IMG/VR virus record: IMGVR_UViG_3300025276_000259
Coordinates: 1-21,072 of that record
Origin: a virus
Reading direction: 5' to 3' (one strand)
Length of the DNA stretch: 21,072 nucleotides
Position 1 is the first letter of the stretch; each line of letters opens with the position of its first letter. Below, piece by piece: positions 1,437 through 17,404 of the stretch. Made by a program: the position numbers and the translations under genes. The notes below the pieces were generated by a model. The model searched no databases. It was not told the origin of the DNA and saw only the letters and a program-made list of their open reading frames with translations.

Positions 1437-1456
1437 TCCGATGCTCCTTTGGTGGG

Positions 1457-1555
1457 TTAGTCTATTGTTTCGCCAATGACGCCAAACTTTCGTCGCCGGT
1501 GGTTCTTAGTTAATTTGTCGTATAACTTACGAAACCATTCTTTGATTGCTTTCAT
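1457..1555 (-). CDS. Very small basic protein, 32 aa
   Basis: An ATG at 1553-1555 sits five bases after AGGAG, inside the 3' end of the helicase gene in another frame. It encodes MKAIKEWFRKLYDKLTKNHR and ends GETID. The stop TAA at 1457-1459 is immediately followed by the CCCACC-AAAGGAG leader of the DUF3310 gene; the same stop-plus-leader arrangement follows real genes elsewhere in the window, which supports this as a genuine reading frame. The first 20 residues could form an amphipathic basic helix. No function is proposed. It overlaps the helicase by 29 nt. Confidence 0.5.
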   Translation of the reverse strand: MKAIKEWFRKLYDKLTKNHRRRKFGVIGETID

Positions 1556-5123: not shown

Positions 5124-5155
5124 GGGGCGCTCACCCAATGAAAAATGAACGCCCC
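5124..5155 (-). other. Intercistronic hairpin before DNA polymerase gene
   Basis: On the minus-strand transcript the arms GGGGCGTTCA and TGAGCGCCCC can pair over 10 positions with one G-U pair and a 12-nt loop. It lies between the SSB stop and the polymerase start and has no U-run, so it is not a typical terminator. It may protect the SSB message or reduce expression of the polymerase relative to SSB; this is inference. Confidence 0.5.
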
Positions 5156-7242: not shown

Positions 7243-7283
7243 CTCAAATTCTCCTTTGGTGGGTTAGTTTGCCGATACGCTAC

Positions 7284-7317
7284 TGCCCCAGTACGCCTTG
7301 TCCGCGTGTCTGGGGCA
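7284..7317 (-). other. Leader hairpin between two early genes
   Basis: Perfect 8-bp arms TGCCCCAG and CTGGGGCA enclose a second short stem ACGC/GCGT around a GGACAAG loop. On the leftward transcript it lies after the stop of the first early gene and about 40 nt before the AAAGGAG site of the second. It has no U-run. It resembles in place and base composition the GGGGC/GCCCC hairpins of the small-gene operon. Confidence 0.55.
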
Positions 7318-12556: not shown

Positions 12557-12593
12557 AAGGGGTATGGAAATGAAAACTCCCATACCCCTTTTT
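12555..12593. terminator. Strong bidirectional terminator between convergent operons
   Basis: A 13-bp perfect stem, AAAAGGGGTATGG with CCATACCCCTTTT, has a 12-nt loop and T-runs on both outer sides. It lies between the Q stop (plus) and the last gene of the leftward small-gene operon (minus), so it probably ends both transcripts. Confidence 0.9.
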
Positions 12594-12630
12594 CAGTCAG
12601 CTTTCGTTTTTTCAGTCAGCTTTCGTTTTT
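12593..12630. repeat. 19-bp perfect tandem duplication
   Basis: The unit TCAGTCAGCTTTCGTTTTT occurs twice in direct succession (12593-12611 and 12612-12630). The second copy encodes the C-terminus and stop of the minus-strand gene ending at 12612; the first lies between that stop and the terminator. It looks like a recent slippage duplication. Confidence 0.8.
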
Positions 12631-12803
12631 TCGCTGGCCTTTTCTCGTTCGGAAACGAGTTCAGCGGCGTAAGTTCTGAGCTTGGGTACATCGTCTGGGT
12701 GCGCCCAGAACTTAGCTTGTCTCAACCCTTTAGCCTTGAGCCGGTCAACATACGCAGCTTGCCGCGATGCACCGGTGTAGTCGTAGTTGTTTTTAGCTGT
12801 CAT
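12612..12803 (-). CDS. Small RHH-like protein, 63 aa
   Basis: The ATG at 12801-12803 directly follows GGTGAGG and overlaps the preceding gene by 11 nt. The product begins MTAKNNYDYTGASRQAAYVD and has RLKAKGLRQAKFWAHPDDVPKL..YAAEL in short form: a basic stretch, a beta-strand-like segment and a helix, as in small ribbon-helix-helix or MazE-type antitoxin-like phage proteins. The tail (SEREKASEKTKAD) is charged. It is the last gene of the leftward small-gene operon, ending just before the bidirectional terminator. A longer frame from 12896 exists but has no ribosome-binding site. DNA binding is inferred. Confidence 0.6.
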   Translation of the reverse strand: MTAKNNYDYTGASRQAAYVDRLKAKGLRQAKFWAHPDDVPKLRTYAAELVSEREKASEKTKAD

Positions 12804-13486: not shown

Positions 13487-13642
13487 TTAGCTGTTAAGCC
13501 ATTCATCATAAGTTTTTAATGGCCGACCTGTAAAGGTATCGTTGCCATCACTATCACCAGCGCAAGACAGATATATCTGATACTCGCTGTCATTGGTTCC
13601 CCTAGTTTGGGTCTGCCAGCTTTCGTTATATGTTAATTCCAT
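13487..13642 (-). CDS. Small unknown protein, 51 aa
   Basis: The ATG at 13640-13642 follows AGGAGAACACT. The product reads MELTYNESWQTQTRGTNDSE, continues YQIYLSCAGDSDGNDTFTGR and ends TYDEWLNS; it is acidic and polar, and may be a small beta-strand protein. The stretch AGGAGAACACTATGGAATTA around its start is identical, over 20 nt, to the start of the upstream gene, hence a shared leader and a shared MEL(T/C)Y N-terminus. The remaining sequences do not look related. Confidence 0.65.
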   Translation of the reverse strand: MELTYNESWQTQTRGTNDSEYQIYLSCAGDSDGNDTFTGRPLKTYDEWLNS

Positions 13643-13651
13643 AGTGTTCTC

Positions 13652-13984
13652 CTAATAGTTAAAACCAGTCAGCTTTCGGATATATGCTAGTCGGTCTGAT
13701 ACATATTCGACTGCAAAAGACTGCGTAAATGGGCAACCACAACAATCATGCTCATGGTCGCAGCGATATGATTGTTTGCTGCAAACTAAATCAAAATACC
13801 TCACACAAGCGACCAGTTTATCTTCGTCTTGTGGGATAGCCTTGTCATGCTCTACTCGCCATATCGTCGTTGCTGCCCCGTCATATTCGGCTGGCTTTTC
13901 CTTATAGCGATTAATAGTCATGCCCTCAACCGGTAGCTCAGTTTTGTACTCTTCTGTTGGGTCGTATTGGTAGCATAATTCCAT
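13652..13984 (-). CDS. Cysteine-rich unknown protein, 110 aa
   Basis: The start ATG 13982-13984 is chosen because it follows the cassette AAAGGAGAACACT; a longer frame from 14032 would read through the hairpin and is rejected. The product starts MELCYQYDPTEEYKTELPVE and has a Cys/His-rich centre, CSKQSYRCDHEHDCCGCPF, with five Cys and two His that could bind zinc or an iron-sulfur cluster. It ends YIRKLTGFNY. No family is recognised. It is separated from its upstream neighbour by a GGGGCGAAAGCCCC hairpin and lies 9 nt before the next gene. Confidence 0.7.
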   Translation of the reverse strand: MELCYQYDPTEEYKTELPVEGMTINRYKEKPAEYDGAATTIWRVEHDKAIPQDEDKLVACVRYFDLVCSKQSYRCDHEHDCCGCPFTQSFAVEYVSDRLAYIRKLTGFNY

Positions 13985-13997
13985 AGTGTTCTCCTTT

Positions 13998-14011
13998 GGG
14001 GCTTTCGCCCC
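13998..14011 (-). repeat. Hairpin-RBS cassette, copy 1
   Basis: On the transcript the hairpin GGGGCGAAAGCCCC (5-bp stem, GAAA tetraloop) lies between the upstream stop in TAACCCACCAACT and the AAAGGAG site of the 13652-13984 gene. This is an exact copy of a unit found six times in the operon. Confidence 0.9.
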
Positions 14012-14021
14012 AGTTGGTGGG

Positions 14022-14399
14022 TTAATATCCAATTGCGTTTAAATAGCTGTCAAGCTGCTTTTCGTCTACTTTGGTTAAATTAATAACCACCACGCCGTCC
14101 AGCATGGTTATTGCGACTGTGTCGCCGTCTCCTGCTAGGCTCTTTAGTTTACTGATAGATACCCGTCTATCGCCGCGCTTGGTTAGATAGAATTTGATCT
14201 TGCAATCTTCCCCGCTTAAATGTCGGGCTTCGATTACAACACCGTTTTCGCCTCCCTTTTCTAGTTGGGTAAAGTCAACACCGTGGGCAAAAGCAAACCG
14301 GCGCACCGTCGCGTTAGCGTCGATGATGCACTTGTCTAACATCGTAAAAGTCAGGTCAATAGTTGCTGTGGGTTGAGGTAATCTTGATACATTATTCAT
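14022..14399 (-). CDS. Unknown protein, 125 aa
   Basis: The ATG at 14397-14399 follows ACAGGAGTTTTAACG. The protein begins MNNVSRLPQPTATIDLTFTM. An N-terminal helix (LDKCIIDANATVRRFAFAHG) is followed by a beta-rich part (KIKFYLTKRGDRRVSISKLK) and (AITMLDGVVVINLTKVDEKQ), possibly a small alpha+beta domain. Its TAA is the first codon of the TAACCCACCAACT hairpin cassette. No family or motif is recognised. Confidence 0.75.
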   Translation of the reverse strand: MNNVSRLPQPTATIDLTFTMLDKCIIDANATVRRFAFAHGVDFTQLEKGGENGVVIEARHLSGEDCKIKFYLTKRGDRRVSISKLKSLAGDGDTVAITMLDGVVVINLTKVDEKQLDSYLNAIGY

Positions 14400-14414
14400 C
14401 GTTAAAACTCCTGT

Positions 14415-14428
14415 GGGGCTTTCGCCCC
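14415..14428 (-). repeat. Hairpin-RBS cassette, copy 2
   Basis: Exact GGGGCGAAAGCCCC hairpin between the stop of the 14439-14633 gene (TAACCCACCAACT) and the ACAGGAG site of the 14022-14399 gene. Confidence 0.9.
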
Positions 14429-14438
14429 AGTTGGTGGG

Positions 14439-14633
14439 TTATCGCGCAGATATGCGCTTGTTTTTCATCATAAATTTATGGGCGTCTTCGATTACGTCGT
14501 TAATCGTTTCTAGCTCAAACATGACTCCAATTTGTTCGTCGGTCAGCGCTTTGGCTGCGTGTCCAGCGTCCAGTGCTTTTTCTATATCGTATTCAAACTT
14601 CTGTAGATACGCGTCTGTCGTTTTACTTATCAA
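14439..14633 (-). CDS. Small unknown protein with TTG start, 64 aa
   Basis: The frame starts at TTG (14631-14633), six bases after AAAGGAG of the cassette; no in-frame ATG is placed at a usable distance. The protein reads MISKTTDAYLQKFEYDIEKA, is helical and mildly acidic, and ends with a basic tail MKNKRISAR. The rare start may keep expression low. No family is recognised. Flanking hairpin cassettes on both sides support it as a separate gene. Confidence 0.65.
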   Translation of the reverse strand: MISKTTDAYLQKFEYDIEKALDAGHAAKALTDEQIGVMFELETINDVIEDAHKFMMKNKRISAR

Positions 14634-14646
14634 AATATTCTCCTTT

Positions 14647-14660
14647 GGGGCTTTCGCCCC
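14647..14660 (-). repeat. Hairpin-RBS cassette, copy 3
   Basis: Exact GGGGCGAAAGCCCC hairpin before AAAGGAG of the TTG-started gene. Here the segment between CCCACC and the hairpin is longer (CCCACCGTAACGACT), a variant shared with copy 4. Confidence 0.9.
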
Positions 14661-14678
14661 AGTCGTTACGGTGGGTTA

Positions 14679-14942
14679 TTAATGAATACGACGACAAACA
14701 AAACCGCCGCGTCTTCCTACTTTTAACAGATAATCTGGATACTCAGGGTATCCCAGCTTTTCCTCGTCTCCGTCAGCTTTTCCTCGATATATGTAACCTA
14801 CTGGGAAAGGGTTTCCGACTAGGCCACTGCCCCAGCGTTTTTCGAGGTCTGCTATCGCCGCTTTAAGCGACGGGTAATTGGTGGCCTTCACTGGGTAAAA
14901 GTCCCTGTTATAACCTTCGGTAAAATATCCGTGTACTTGCAT
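14679..14942 (-). CDS. Unknown phage protein, 87 aa
   Basis: The ATG at 14940-14942 follows AAAGGAGAACACC. The product begins MQVHGYFTEGYNRDFYPVKA and has SLKAAIADLEKRWGSG, then GNPFPVGYIYRGK and a basic end (GRRGGFVCRRIH). The aromatic-rich, beta-type sequence suggests a compact domain. I have an impression of similar small proteins in other phages but cannot name a family. Cassette hairpins lie on both sides. Confidence 0.75.
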   Translation of the reverse strand: MQVHGYFTEGYNRDFYPVKATNYPSLKAAIADLEKRWGSGLVGNPFPVGYIYRGKADGDEEKLGYPEYPDYLLKVGRRGGFVCRRIH

Positions 14943-14955
14943 GGTGTTCTCCTTT

Positions 14956-14969
14956 GGGGCTTTCGCCCC
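14956..14969 (-). repeat. Hairpin-RBS cassette, copy 4
   Basis: Exact GGGGCGAAAGCCCC hairpin between the stop of the 33-aa membrane protein (TAACCCACCATAACGACT) and AAAGGAG of the 14679-14942 gene. Confidence 0.9.
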
Positions 14970-14984
14970 AGTCGTTATGGTGGG

Positions 14985-15086
14985 TTAGATTGAGTCGTAC
15001 GCAGCTTTGATAATCACGGCAGATAGCCAGATAATAAAAGCCCAGACACCAAGGTGTCCGCTTTTAATCGCCTTGAAAAGCTTCAT
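14985..15086 (-). CDS. Tiny membrane protein, 33 aa
   Basis: The ATG at 15084-15086 overlaps the upstream TGA (ATGA). The product is MKLFKAIKSGHLGVWAFIIW and then LSAVIIKAAYDSI: a basic amphipathic start followed by one transmembrane helix of about 17 residues. A longer frame from 15167 would overlap the upstream gene extensively and has a non-membrane, unlikely N-terminus. Tiny single-span proteins in phages include holin-like and membrane-enzyme modulators; nothing specific can be said here. Confidence 0.6.
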   Translation of the reverse strand: MKLFKAIKSGHLGVWAFIIWLSAVIIKAAYDSI

Positions 15087-15277
15087 TTGTTTAGCTCGTC
15101 CTGTAGCGCGTTTATTTCCTTTCCCATAGTGTTGAAAAGCACCATTAGGCCGGTAATCATCGCGCATTTATCAGCGTCTCCCATACTGTGGGCGATCTTC
15201 ATACCGTAGCTGGTAGCGCCTTCTATGCTGTCGTAAGTGGCAAATACTGGTACTGTTTTAATCGGTTGTGTGTTCAT
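15083..15277 (-). CDS. Small unknown protein, 64 aa
   Basis: The ATG at 15275-15277 follows AGAGGAAATAACC and lies 2 nt after the upstream stop. The product starts MNTQPIKTVPVFATYDSIEG and contains the moderately hydrophobic helix KCAMITGLMVLFNTMGKEIN, probably a packing or oligomerisation helix, and ends LQDELNK. Its TGA overlaps the start of the tiny membrane protein, so the two are translationally coupled and might work together. Confidence 0.65.
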   Translation of the reverse strand: MNTQPIKTVPVFATYDSIEGATSYGMKIAHSMGDADKCAMITGLMVLFNTMGKEINALQDELNK

Positions 15278-15279
15278 GG

Positions 15280-15471
15280 TTATTTCCTCTCGTTGGTTAA
15301 TGCTGGCAGACCGACGTTATTTAAAACGTGCTCTTCTAATAAATCCTCCAGTGATGAAAAATAGCTTTGTACATATTCCCTTACGGTTTCATCCGTAATA
15401 TTTAAATCTTCTAAAAGTATTTCCATGTTTTCCTTAATAACGTCTACTGTAAATTCTATTCTTATTTTCAT
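15280..15471 (-). CDS. Small acidic helical protein, 63 aa
   Basis: The ATG at 15469-15471 follows GAAGGAGTTTTACAA. One N-terminal strand (MKIRIEFTVDVI) is followed by acidic helices, ENMEILLEDLNITDETVREY and VQSYFSSLEDLLEEHVLNNV. Strong negative charge is common in DNA-mimic and inhibitor proteins but does not prove such a role. No family is recognised. A cassette hairpin precedes the gene. Confidence 0.65.
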   Translation of the reverse strand: MKIRIEFTVDVIKENMEILLEDLNITDETVREYVQSYFSSLEDLLEEHVLNNVGLPALTNERK

Positions 15472-15486
15472 TTGTAAAACTCCTTC

Positions 15487-15500
15487 GGGGCTTTCGCCCC
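15487..15500 (-). repeat. Hairpin-RBS cassette, copy 5
   Basis: Exact GGGGCGAAAGCCCC hairpin between TAACCCACCAACT, the end of the 15511-15702 gene, and GAAGGAG of the 15280-15471 gene. Confidence 0.9.
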
Positions 15501-15510
15501 AGTTGGTGGG

Positions 15511-15702
15511 TTAAAGTGATGCTGTGCTGTGGACTACTTGCCGGCCGTCGACTTCTGCAATGACTGTGCAAATATCGTAGCCTTTAACCTTCTTTCTAGT
15601 GGACTTTTGAAAACGCGCCCTAGCTTTCTCTTGCGCTTCGTATGAACTGGCCGCGTGTACTTCTTCGCGGTTTTGATTCCAAAAGCATATATAACCGTTC
15701 AT
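15511..15702 (-). CDS. Conserved-looking small phage protein, 63 aa
   Basis: The ATG at 15700-15702 follows an ACGGGGT element. The product is MNGYICFWNQNREEVHAASS, then YEAQEKARARFQKSTRKKVK, then GYDICTVIAEVDGRQVVHST. This strand-helix-strand layout, with SYEAQ..A...F in the helix and LAE/IAE-DG-QVVH at the end, resembles a small protein I have seen in several tailed phages, for which I know no function. The upstream membrane-protein stop is only 3 nt away. Confidence 0.7.
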   Translation of the reverse strand: MNGYICFWNQNREEVHAASSYEAQEKARARFQKSTRKKVKGYDICTVIAEVDGRQVVHSTASL

Positions 15703-15705
15703 AAA

Positions 15706-15861
15706 TTACCCCGTAACATTAATTATTTGAAACATTGCCAACACGGTCACAATTGACCATGCAAGCGCCAACACAAAACCACAAAAAACCATTGATTTAA
15801 TGATGCTTCCACCCAGTAGTGAAAGCTCCTGTATTAGTTCTCTTTTTGTTTGTCTGTTCAT
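15706..15861 (-). CDS. Small membrane protein, 51 aa
   Basis: The ATG at 15859-15861 shares one base with the TAA of the GP88-like gene (TAATG). The product begins MNRQTKRELIQELSLLGGSI and continues IIKSMVFCGFVLALAWSIVT. It has a basic N-terminal helix followed by one transmembrane span of roughly 20 residues (about 24-45), so an N-in single-pass protein is predicted. It could be holin-like or a membrane modulator; no family is recognised. Coupling to the GP88 gene may point to joint function. Confidence 0.65.
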   Translation of the reverse strand: MNRQTKRELIQELSLLGGSIIKSMVFCGFVLALAWSIVTVLAMFQIINVTG

Positions 15862-16532
15862 TACGCCACCTCTAAAAGTTTGATTTTGATAACCTTCGCC
15901 ATGGTTCGTCCGTGGGCCACATAAGCAATAGTTTTAATACCTGAGTCCCAGCAATCACGGCATTTTCCGCACTTGCCATCGTTTGCCCATGCATTGCAGA
16001 GTGACATCTCTGGCGTCAAATATTCGGGCGTTGGTATTATTGTCGTGTTGGGTAGGCTAGTAGTAAGAATACCGCCTAGAACTGAATCACTAGAGAGCCT
16101 CACGGCTACGTTAGGGAGCGATTCCATATTGTTCAATACTTTCATAAACTTAGGGAATTTGTGCTGTCTGGTAGGGAACCAGTGCCGGCAGTGGGGCGTC
16201 GCTGCCATAACTGCTAGAATCTTTTTAGCGAGTCTCAAGTCGTAGCAGTCGCCGGAGTCAAACCACCTAAAATATCGGTGACTGTCTAACTCTTCGACCA
16301 TGTCGTCGACCCAGTCGTCGCGTTTCCAATCTTGCCGGTTGGCGATGCGTGGGGCTTTGACGTTGGGATAACGGTAATTACCGCCCAGTGCGTAACAACC
16401 CTTGCAAGCGTCGGCTAGTTCGTATTTTCCGGACTTTAAAGAGCCGGATATAATAGCGGCGGGGCAAGTTAGGAGCGCTTCAAGGCTCCAGCTTCCGGCG
16501 CGTATTTTCTGCGTCTGACTAATATGTATCAT
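15861..16532 (-). CDS. GP88-family cysteine-rich protein, 223 aa
   Basis: The N-terminus has SWSLEALLTCPAA and ELADACKGCYALGGNYRYPN (Cys23, Cys43, Cys46), then RIANRQDWKRDDW and the RWFDSGDCYDL block (about 89-99), TPHCRHWFPTRQHKFPKF, and a C-terminal CGKCRDC cluster (Cys188, 191, 194). This is the pattern of the 'Gene product 88' (GP88) family known from mycobacteriophages, plasmids and other mobile elements, whose function I do not know. The Cys spacing suggests metal or Fe-S binding and the barrel-like motif order recalls radical-SAM-type folds, which is speculation. The RBS AAAGGA is rather distant. It is by far the largest gene of the small-gene operon. Confidence 0.8.
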   Translation of the reverse strand: MIHISQTQKIRAGSWSLEALLTCPAAIISGSLKSGKYELADACKGCYALGGNYRYPNVKAPRIANRQDWKRDDWVDDMVEELDSHRYFRWFDSGDCYDLRLAKKILAVMAATPHCRHWFPTRQHKFPKFMKVLNNMESLPNVAVRLSSDSVLGGILTTSLPNTTIIPTPEYLTPEMSLCNAWANDGKCGKCRDCWDSGIKTIAYVAHGRTMAKVIKIKLLEVA

Positions 16533-16565
16533 TAGCTTTTTATCCTTTGGTGGGATTTATTGGTT

Positions 16566-16579
16566 GGGGCTTTCGCCCC
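16566..16579 (-). repeat. Hairpin-RBS cassette, copy 6
   Basis: Exact GGGGCGAAAGCCCC hairpin upstream of the GP88-like gene. Element order differs: the hairpin comes first and TCCCACCAAAGGA follows it, so the two halves of the cassette can be rearranged. Confidence 0.85.
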
Positions 16580-16588
16580 AGTAGTTAA

Positions 16589-16747
16589 TTAATAAGTAGC
16601 TAAGCGGGTTTTTAATTGTCGCTTTGTCCGGCTAACAATTAAGCTCAATAGTTCAGCGCGTCGGCTGGCCATGCGGGAGTCGTACGGGGTGCAAACTGTC
16701 CCAGTAGATAAGGGCATTTTTAAAGGGTGGTTGTTTGTCTTATTCAT
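16589..16747 (-). CDS. Small basic protein, 52 aa
   Basis: The ATG at 16745-16747 follows AAAGGAAATATTAACC, part of a TAACCCACCAAAGGA leader. The product is MNKTNNHPLKMPLSTGTVCT, then PYDSRMASRRAELLSLIVSR and a basic tail TKRQLKTRLATY. A single amphipathic helix (about residues 25-50) is predicted. Nucleic-acid binding is possible from charge alone. No family is recognised. Confidence 0.6.
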   Translation of the reverse strand: MNKTNNHPLKMPLSTGTVCTPYDSRMASRRAELLSLIVSRTKRQLKTRLATY

Positions 16748-16769
16748 GGTTAATATTTCCTTTGGTGGG

Positions 16770-16979
16770 TTATATTTTAGCTAGTAATTCTTTTCGCAAA
16801 GAATAGATTTTCAGGTGTTCATCAACTGGGCAGTTTTTAGCGTAGTCCCATATATGCGGCAAAGCGTTTTGATATATTTCCAACCAGTTGCAGCCGGTAA
16901 CTTTTACGATATTTGATAGACTAGTATCATGGCCATTGATAACCATGCTTAGCACTAGGTTAGATATATTAGCTTTCAT
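16770..16979 (-). CDS. Small unknown protein, 69 aa
   Basis: The ATG at 16977-16979 is chosen since AAAGGAGTTTTAACC precedes it; the longer frame from 17003 overlaps the upstream gene without a binding site. The product begins MKANISNLVLSMVINGHDTS and has a helix-rich remainder, WLEIYQNALPHIWDYAKNC. The pattern of short helices resembles a small HTH-like fold (SNIVKVTGCNWLEIYQNALP), but this is weak. The 17 nt around its start are identical to those of the preceding gene. Confidence 0.65.
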   Translation of the reverse strand: MKANISNLVLSMVINGHDTSLSNIVKVTGCNWLEIYQNALPHIWDYAKNCPVDEHLKIYSLRKELLAKI

Positions 16980-16992
16980 GGTTAAAACTCCT

Positions 16993-17199
16993 TTAATAAT
17001 CAAAGTCTAAAAATACGGTGGTATTTGGGTTTAAAAATACTTCTCGGTTGATGTCTTCAGCATCTGAACAACATATTGAAGCGGGGCCGAATGAGTCCTT
17101 GCGGTTGAAGTGTTCACGAATAAAAACGGTTTTAGAATCTATCTTCCGCTTAAATAGTTCACCCTTCTTGAGTGCTTTTAAAGTAATGGTTTTACTCAT
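16993..17199 (-). CDS. First gene of the small-gene operon, 68 aa
   Basis: The ATG at 17197-17199 follows AAGGAGTTTTAACC. The product begins MSKTITLKALKKGELFKRKI, then TVFIREHFNRKDSFGPASIC and ends INREVFLNPNTTVFLDFDY. The KALKKGELFKRK...V+.R...(D)DINREVFL.....VF..F.Y pattern recalls a widespread small phage protein of unknown function, predicted to be a compact beta barrel. It is promoter-proximal, so likely the most strongly expressed gene of the operon. Confidence 0.75.
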   Translation of the reverse strand: MSKTITLKALKKGELFKRKIDSKTVFIREHFNRKDSFGPASICCSDAEDINREVFLNPNTTVFLDFDY

Positions 17200-17223: not shown

Positions 17224-17244
17224 GGCCCCAGCTATCGCGGGGCC
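17224..17244 (-). other. Leader hairpin of the small-gene operon
   Basis: Arms GGCCCC and GGGGCC with an inner GC/GC pair form a strong hairpin about 15 nt upstream of the first gene's AAGGAG. It has the same position relative to the ribosome-binding site as the six cassette hairpins, but not the same sequence. Confidence 0.6.
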
Positions 17245-17302: not shown

Positions 17303-17376
17303 ATAAACTGCCACTTTGGCAGTGCTTCGCCCCAGTATTAGTGTTTTAATCCGATCAAATACCAAACTAACCACTT

Positions 17377-17404
17377 AACCCGCTCCGGCGGGTTTTGTCG
17401 TTTT
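17377..17404 (+). terminator. Terminator-like hairpin in the leader of the terminase genes
   Basis: A 7-bp stem AACCCGC/GCGGGTT with TCCG loop is followed by TTTTGTCGTTTT on the plus strand. It ends right before the terminase small-subunit ribosome-binding site. Upstream genes are on the other strand, so the only transcript it could stop is one starting in the control region, as at lambda tR'. It has the same stem sequence as the repressor terminator. Confidence 0.7.

What the first reader, a model, noticed from the sequence alone, without database searches (positions are those of the whole stretch)
13991..16591. Six identical hairpin plus ribosome-binding cassettes between small genes
GGGGCGAAAGCCCC, a 5-bp stem with a GAAA tetraloop, is repeated exactly six times (13998, 14415, 14647, 14956, 15487, 16566), always on the minus-strand transcript, after a stop codon in TAACCCACC and normally just before AAAGGAG. 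Related GC hairpins precede other gene starts (17224-17244, 7284-7317, 5124-5155). An RNA element tied to translation starts is suggested: it could hold the ribosome site open, mark RNase cuts or stop upstream ribosomes or nucleases. As identical islands they could also be recombination points for swapping gene cassettes.
Basis: partly seen in the sequence, partly recalled or inferred. Interest (0 to 1): 0.72.

Follow-up and report, generated by a model that had tools for sequence, protein, structure and literature searches.

The report
Repeated RNA hairpins between phage genes
A bacteriophage carries the same extra-stable little RNA hairpin about nine letters after the stop signal of several small genes, most likely to cap and protect each gene's message, and the hairpin keeps its shape (and its lineage's own spelling) while the genes around it are swapped between relatives.

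Summary
In detail: GGGGCGAAAGCCCC occurs six times, exactly at the stated places, all in the sense of the small-gene operon. About 25 related IMG/VR contigs carry the element at about 76 junctions (55 exact 14-mers sense, 0 antisense) between many different gene pairs. Stems stay paired; loops are mostly hyperstable tetraloops (GAAA, GCAA, GCGA, UUCG). The hairpin starts a median of 9-10 nt after the stop codon and is a clean insertion into a standard 22-nt spacer. It has no U-tract and no promoter, and deleting it does not change predicted Shine-Dalgarno accessibility, so terminator, promoter-cassette and 'opens the ribosome site' readings are not supported. In 309 unrelated viral contigs the same 14-mer also sits about 9 nt after stop codons (76% sense, 7% antisense, mostly without U-tract); other tetraloop hairpins do not. 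Best reading: a cistron 3'-end cap (exonuclease barrier) on polycistronic phage mRNA. Secondarily the islands are joints of cassette exchange: some cassettes 95-98% identical between lineages are bounded by hairpins in each recipient's dialect, but hairpin junctions are not broken more often than other spacers. Function is untested; a new variant of known intercistronic phage hairpins.

The parts
13998..14011 (-). hairpin copy 1, between genes 14022-14399 and 13652-13984; junction TAACCCACCAACT-hairpin-AAAGGAGAACACT-ATG
14415..14428 (-). hairpin copy 2, between genes 14439-14633 and 14022-14399; ...ACAGGAGTTTTAACG-ATG
14647..14660 (-). hairpin copy 3, between genes 14679-14942 and 14439-14633 (TTG start)
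14956..14969 (-). hairpin copy 4, between genes 14985-15086 and 14679-14942; TAACCCACCATAACGACT-hairpin
15487..15500 (-). hairpin copy 5, between genes 15511-15702 and 15280-15471; hairpin-GAAGGAG
16566..16579 (-). hairpin copy 6, between genes 16589-16747 and GP88-like gene 15861-16532; CCCACC lies downstream of the hairpin
16758..16772 (-). hairpin-less base spacer TAACCCACCAAAGGA
7251..7266 (-). hairpin-less base spacer TAACCCACCAAAGGAG in the replication module
1444..1459 (-). hairpin-less base spacer TAACCCACCAAAGGAG
17224..17244 (-). different GC hairpin in the leader of the first small gene
7284..7317 (-). larger GC hairpin just after a gene end and before TAACCCACCAAAGGAG
5124..5155 (-). 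GC hairpin upstream of the DNA polymerase gene
15861..16532 (-). GP88-family gene (PF17338), used to find relatives
13487..17199 (-). operon of small, mostly unassigned genes in which the hairpins lie; hypervariable in relatives (79 protein clusters in the set of contigs)

Best explanation
The element is a transcribed intercistronic cap: a short, hyperstable tetraloop hairpin placed about 9 nt after a stop codon, which is just beyond the mRNA that a terminating ribosome should cover, and inserted neatly into the phage's standard stop-to-Shine-Dalgarno spacer. In the polycistronic mRNA it most likely blocks 3'-to-5' exonucleases, so that after cleavage or premature 3' ends downstream each upstream cistron survives as a translatable unit, while transcription and translation pass through because there is no U-tract and the Shine-Dalgarno stays outside the stem. 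Shown: position, orientation, stem maintenance, loop class, absence of U-tract, recurrence in unrelated phages, dialects. Inferred: the exonuclease block and its benefit. As a by-product, the near-identical islands act as homologous joints when small-gene cassettes are exchanged.
For: 55 sense and 0 antisense 14-mers in the family. Stop-to-hairpin mostly 8-17 nt. Core pairs all kept in 14 distinct variants, with one G-C to A-U double change and four C-G to U-G; 4-nt loops include GAAA, GCAA, GCGA and UUCG. In 309 unrelated viral loci the 14-mer is 76% sense after-stop vs 7% antisense, cUNCGg hairpins 61% vs 5%, other tetraloop hairpins 14% vs 15%; 64 of 103 lack a U-tract, median 9 nt after the stop. 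Hairpin presence follows the upstream gene (concordance 0.64; 1 of 2000 permutations) more than the downstream gene (0.55; 201 of 2000). Hairpin predicted to form with mean probability 0.93. E. coli galE gives a worked precedent: an intercistronic 8-bp, 4-nt-loop hairpin blocks exonuclease digestion (PMC11925234). A terminator only 5 bp after a stop had under 10% efficiency, maximal beyond 27 nt (PMC4824070), so such a placement favours read-through.
Against: No RNA data; the exonuclease block is by analogy. The stem (5-6 bp) is shorter than galE's 8 bp. Many junctions of the same operon have no hairpin, and some orthologous junctions have it in one phage and not in another. Substitutional covariation is too sparse to beat shuffles. 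C-G-closed GNRA hairpins other than the 14-mer show only a weak after-stop bias in the unrelated loci (30% vs 18%). The tight hairpin-to-start spacing (11-15 nt in most copies) leaves a translational role open.
Confidence: 0.5

Rival explanations
1. The islands exist mainly as recombination joints for shuffling small-gene cassettes, as proposed for T4-type PeSL cassettes; the hairpin as RNA is secondary.
For: Cassettes far more alike than the backbone: gene cluster 16 is 98.1% identical between L013 and L017 (terminase 87.2%), with identity ending inside the hairpin junctions on both sides, where each phage keeps its own dialect; cluster 14 is 94-95% identical between the window/L015 and L036 (terminase 81-82%) with the same edges. 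Window gene 14679-14942 is replaced by another gene between two kept hairpins in L008, L012 and L013.
Against: Gene neighbours change in 73-77% of comparisons at hairpin junctions but in 84-88% at spacers without hairpin; the 99.5% identical cluster 1 exchange between L013 and L185 has no hairpin at either edge. A DNA joint needs neither a hyperstable loop nor a fixed distance to the stop codon, nor recurrence in unrelated phages.
Confidence: 0.2
2. Translation element: the hairpin tunes reinitiation or coupling by looping out RNA and keeping stop and start at an effective distance of about 22 nt, or it serves as a ribosome standby or insulator.
For: Junction length minus hairpin is 23 nt (median) against 22 nt for hairpin-less CCCACC junctions (p 0.21), while total lengths differ (p 5e-7); start spacing 11-15 nt in most copies.
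Against: Predicted Shine-Dalgarno accessibility is the same with, without or with scrambled hairpin; a second class has the hairpin 30-32 nt from the start; in unrelated phages only about half of after-stop copies are followed closely by a start.
Confidence: 0.17
3. Weak or conditional transcription terminators or pause sites within the operon.
For: 39 of 103 after-stop copies in unrelated loci have a U-tract, and in relatives a GGGGC-UACG-GCCCC stem with T-run lies at an operon end, so the same core is used as a terminator elsewhere.
Against: In the family no copy has 5 or more T in the next 8 nt (69 of 73 have 0-2); none is called by the terminator scan; position 4-17 nt after the stop is where ribosomes repress terminators (PMC4824070).
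Confidence: 0.08
4. Binding site of a phage or host RNA-binding protein that co-regulates the small genes; lineage dialects reflect its recognition.
For: Flank dialects are uniform within genomes (ACT before the stem in all copies of one group, mostly ATA or ACA in the other) and can disagree with the terminase relationship (L013).
Against: Loop and flank vary within the family (GNRA to UUCG), which is unlike a specific operator; no candidate protein identified.
Confidence: 0.05

Closest known systems
Intercistronic exonuclease-barrier hairpins (E. coli galE-galT; REP-type elements)
   Same: GC hairpin with 4-nt loop at the end of a cistron, between stop codon and next Shine-Dalgarno, no U-tract
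   Different: phage, six near-identical copies in one operon, shorter stem, ultra-stable tetraloops; barrier function untested here
PeSL cassettes (promoter early stem-loop) of T4-type phages
   Same: repeated intergenic stem-loop cassettes in a region of shuffled small genes
   Different: no promoter in the cassette, no terminator tail; hairpin followed at once by a ribosome site; nothing here points to a T4-type phage
SAS/ESAS of cluster K mycobacteriophages
   Same: repeats at starts of a subset of non-structural genes, with inverted repeats whose consensus differs between subclusters (PMC3203893)
   Different: different sequences; ESAS has 17-bp imperfect repeats beside a 13-bp SAS; here a 5-6-bp perfect stem placed by the stop codon
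T4 CUUCGG intercistronic hairpins (recalled from memory, not looked up)
   Same: hyperstable tetraloop hairpins between phage genes
   Different: here mostly GNRA loops, with UUCG in some relatives

Membership tests
Intercistronic exonuclease-barrier hairpin | stable transcribed hairpin between stop codon and next start | tested here: met
   (transcription inferred from gene order)
Intercistronic exonuclease-barrier hairpin | mRNA 3' ends accumulate just 3' of the hairpin and depend on the stem | not testable with these tools
   needs 3'-end mapping; precedent PMC11925234
Intrinsic (Rho-independent) terminator | U-tract directly after the stem | tested here: not met
   0 of 73 family copies with 5 or more T in 8 nt; not called in the window
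PeSL cassette | early promoter within the cassette | tested here: not met
   promoter-like sites at shuffle level in the region (8 found, 8.9 expected), and the 11-15 nt from hairpin to start leave no room for one; only sigma-70-type promoters were scanned
PeSL cassette | stem-loop cassettes between shuffled genes | tested here: met
SAS/ESAS | 13-bp GGGATAGGAGCCC and 17-bp inverted repeats | tested here: not met
   junction sequences; definition
RNase III processing site | about 11 or more bp of duplex (general knowledge) | tested here: not met
   stem 5-6 bp, up to 8 in variants
Known Rfam family | score above gathering threshold | tested here: not met
   no Rfam match in the window

The most novel reading that the evidence does not exclude
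Hyperstable tetraloop hairpins placed at a fixed distance (about 9 nt) after stop codons, without a U-tract, are a general but undescribed 'cistron cap' of phage mRNAs. In this family the caps evolve in concert within each genome, independently of the genes they separate, so that genes from one lineage acquire the other lineage's caps (L013).
Probability: 0.2. Interest if true: 0.72.

Novelty: new variant of a known kind. Interest (0 to 1): 0.5.

Why it matters
It offers a compact natural test of how phages protect and partition polycistronic messages without terminators, and a clear case in which the joint between swapped genes carries its own conserved RNA structure. If the after-stop spacing holds in a proper phage-wide survey, it gives a simple rule for annotating small phage genes and a ready part for operon design.

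Tried and rejected
Terminator (no U-tract). Promoter cassette. Insulator that opens the Shine-Dalgarno (no change on deletion or scrambling). Hairpins as preferred breakpoints. Formal covariation (too few substitutions). Known RNA family or tRNA. Host identification: the one bacterial genome scan with the hairpin-RBS motif gave a single MAG contig that looks like a chance match; GenBank phages have no near match and no match to a hairpin cassette. A loose pattern scan returned mostly chance matches. More distant GP88-bearing contigs (L018-L024) show no such family of hairpins at their junctions. The two original PeSL papers are not held, so PeSL is described from their titles and a citing paper.

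Full report
OBSERVATION. The window is a whole 21,072-base IMG/VR virus record. GGGGCGAAAGCCCC occurs exactly six times, all on the minus strand at the stated positions, with no other match within two mismatches and none of 100 shuffles reaching that number. The copies lie in an operon of small genes (13487-17199, minus), with a GP88-family gene among them. It is flanked by a terminase module on one side and, beyond a plus-strand primase and Q-like segment, a replication module with DNA polymerase A, Enc34-type ssDNA-binding protein, DUF2800 and SNF2 helicase.

RELATIVES. Pattern, GP88 and terminase searches gave about 25 related contigs with usable small-gene regions. I called genes with a simple script and clustered the proteins (79 clusters; gene calls are approximate). 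Counting junctions up to the end of the operon, 76 contain the GGGG-type hairpin, 17 only CCCACC, 41 are plain spacers, 14 hold another hairpin and 90 are overlaps or near-overlaps. The 14-mer occurs 55 times in the sense of the genes and never antisense.

ANATOMY. The hairpin begins mostly 8-17 nt after the stop codon, which is TAA in 69 of 73, and ends 11-15 nt before the start codon, or 30-32 nt in a second class that has CCCACC between hairpin and Shine-Dalgarno. Subtracting the hairpin leaves a median spacer of 23 nt, the same as the 22 nt of hairpin-less CCCACC junctions (p 0.21): it is an insert into a standard spacer TAACCCACCA/AAGGAG. Variants keep the stem: GGGGC-GAAA, GGGGC-GCAA, GGGGU-GAAA, GGGGCCA-GCGA-UGG, GGGGCU-AAA-AG, GGGGC-UUCG, AGGGC-UUCG-GCCCU, GGGGU-UUCG, GGGGC-UUUG. 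The five core pairs are intact in all 14 distinct variants, with one double change and four C-G to U-G changes, but shuffles do not separate this from chance because there is so little substitution. No half-decayed hairpin was found among 59 other spaced junctions: one holds an unrelated GGGG, and one is an intact variant cut by my gene call in L190.

UNRELATED VIRUSES. Scans for the 14-mer alone also return unrelated viral contigs. In 309 loci outside the family, 103 of 135 copies (76%) start within 30 nt after a stop codon of a 60-codon or longer open frame in the same sense and 7% in antisense, median distance 9 nt. C-G-closed UNCG hairpins behave alike (61% vs 5%), other tetraloop hairpins do not (14% vs 15%); other C-G-closed GNRA hairpins show only a weak bias (30% vs 18%). 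64 of the 103 lack a U-tract. The common anchor is therefore the stop codon; a start codon follows closely in only about half.

FUNCTION. No U-tract in any family copy, no excess of promoters, no effect of the hairpin on predicted Shine-Dalgarno accessibility (0.567 with, 0.564 deleted, 0.549 scrambled). A hairpin this close to a stop would be a poor terminator even with a U-tract (PMC4824070). What remains is a stable structure just outside the terminating ribosome (the ribosome footprint is general knowledge). The E. coli galE hairpin, in a like position, blocks exonucleases and defines the 3' end of a cistron (PMC11925234). I therefore favour a cistron cap at 0.5, the rest being shared by recombination, translation, termination and protein-binding readings.

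RECOMBINATION. The region is highly mosaic. Single cassettes are far more similar between lineages than the terminase. Cluster 16 in L013 and L017 is 98.1% identical, running from the hairpin and its ribosome site through TAACCCACCA and breaking at the next hairpin, where L013 has ACT-type and L017 ATA-type flanks. Cluster 14 in the window and L036 shows the same edges. Yet cluster 1 (99.5% between L013 and L185) was exchanged with no hairpin at either edge, and neighbours change no more often at hairpin junctions than at other spacers (the pairwise counts are not independent). So hairpin junctions serve as joints but are not special ones.

DIALECTS. In one group all copies are preceded by ACT, in the other mostly by ATA or ACA. 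L013 has a terminase nearer to the second group (87-90% vs 81% to the window) and several genes 92-99% identical to it, but all four of its hairpins are in the first group's dialect. This suggests homogenisation of copies within a genome, or replacement. It resembles the subcluster-specific consensus of ESAS repeats (PMC3203893). It is a small sample.

VERDICT. Observation confirmed, interpretation partly supported, new variant of a known kind.

Noticed in passing
window 16758-16772, 7251-7266, 1444-1459, and at 14021, 14438, 14675, 14984, 15510 (minus): CCCACC directly after the stop codon is a hallmark of spacers in several parts of this phage, with or without hairpin; L009 has it in tandem (TAACCCACCATAACCCACCATAACGACT). 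Its role is unexplained.
   Followed up: partly
window 14439-14633 (minus): The gene's 3' end seems fused to the 3' end of a different gene that is separate in L015 and L012 (junction near 14455), a cassette deletion whose edge lies before the stop codon rather than in the hairpin.
   Followed up: partly
window about 17306-17323 and 17377-17394: Two inverted repeats conserved in most relatives near the operon start: ACTGCC-AAAGT-GGCAGT (operator-like) and AACCCGC-TCCG-GCGGGTT (terminator-like, between operon and terminase).
   Followed up: no
window 12583-12642: 19-bp tandem repeats at the end of the last small gene, followed by a two-way terminator-like hairpin (about 12558-12596).
   Followed up: no
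L302, L256, L276, L297, L337: Several contigs share one junction with the same 14-mer about 5 nt after a stop (GAATAACGAAT-hairpin-ATAAACAGGATGATTCGATG); a partly similar region occurs in Escherichia phage PHB10.
   Followed up: partly
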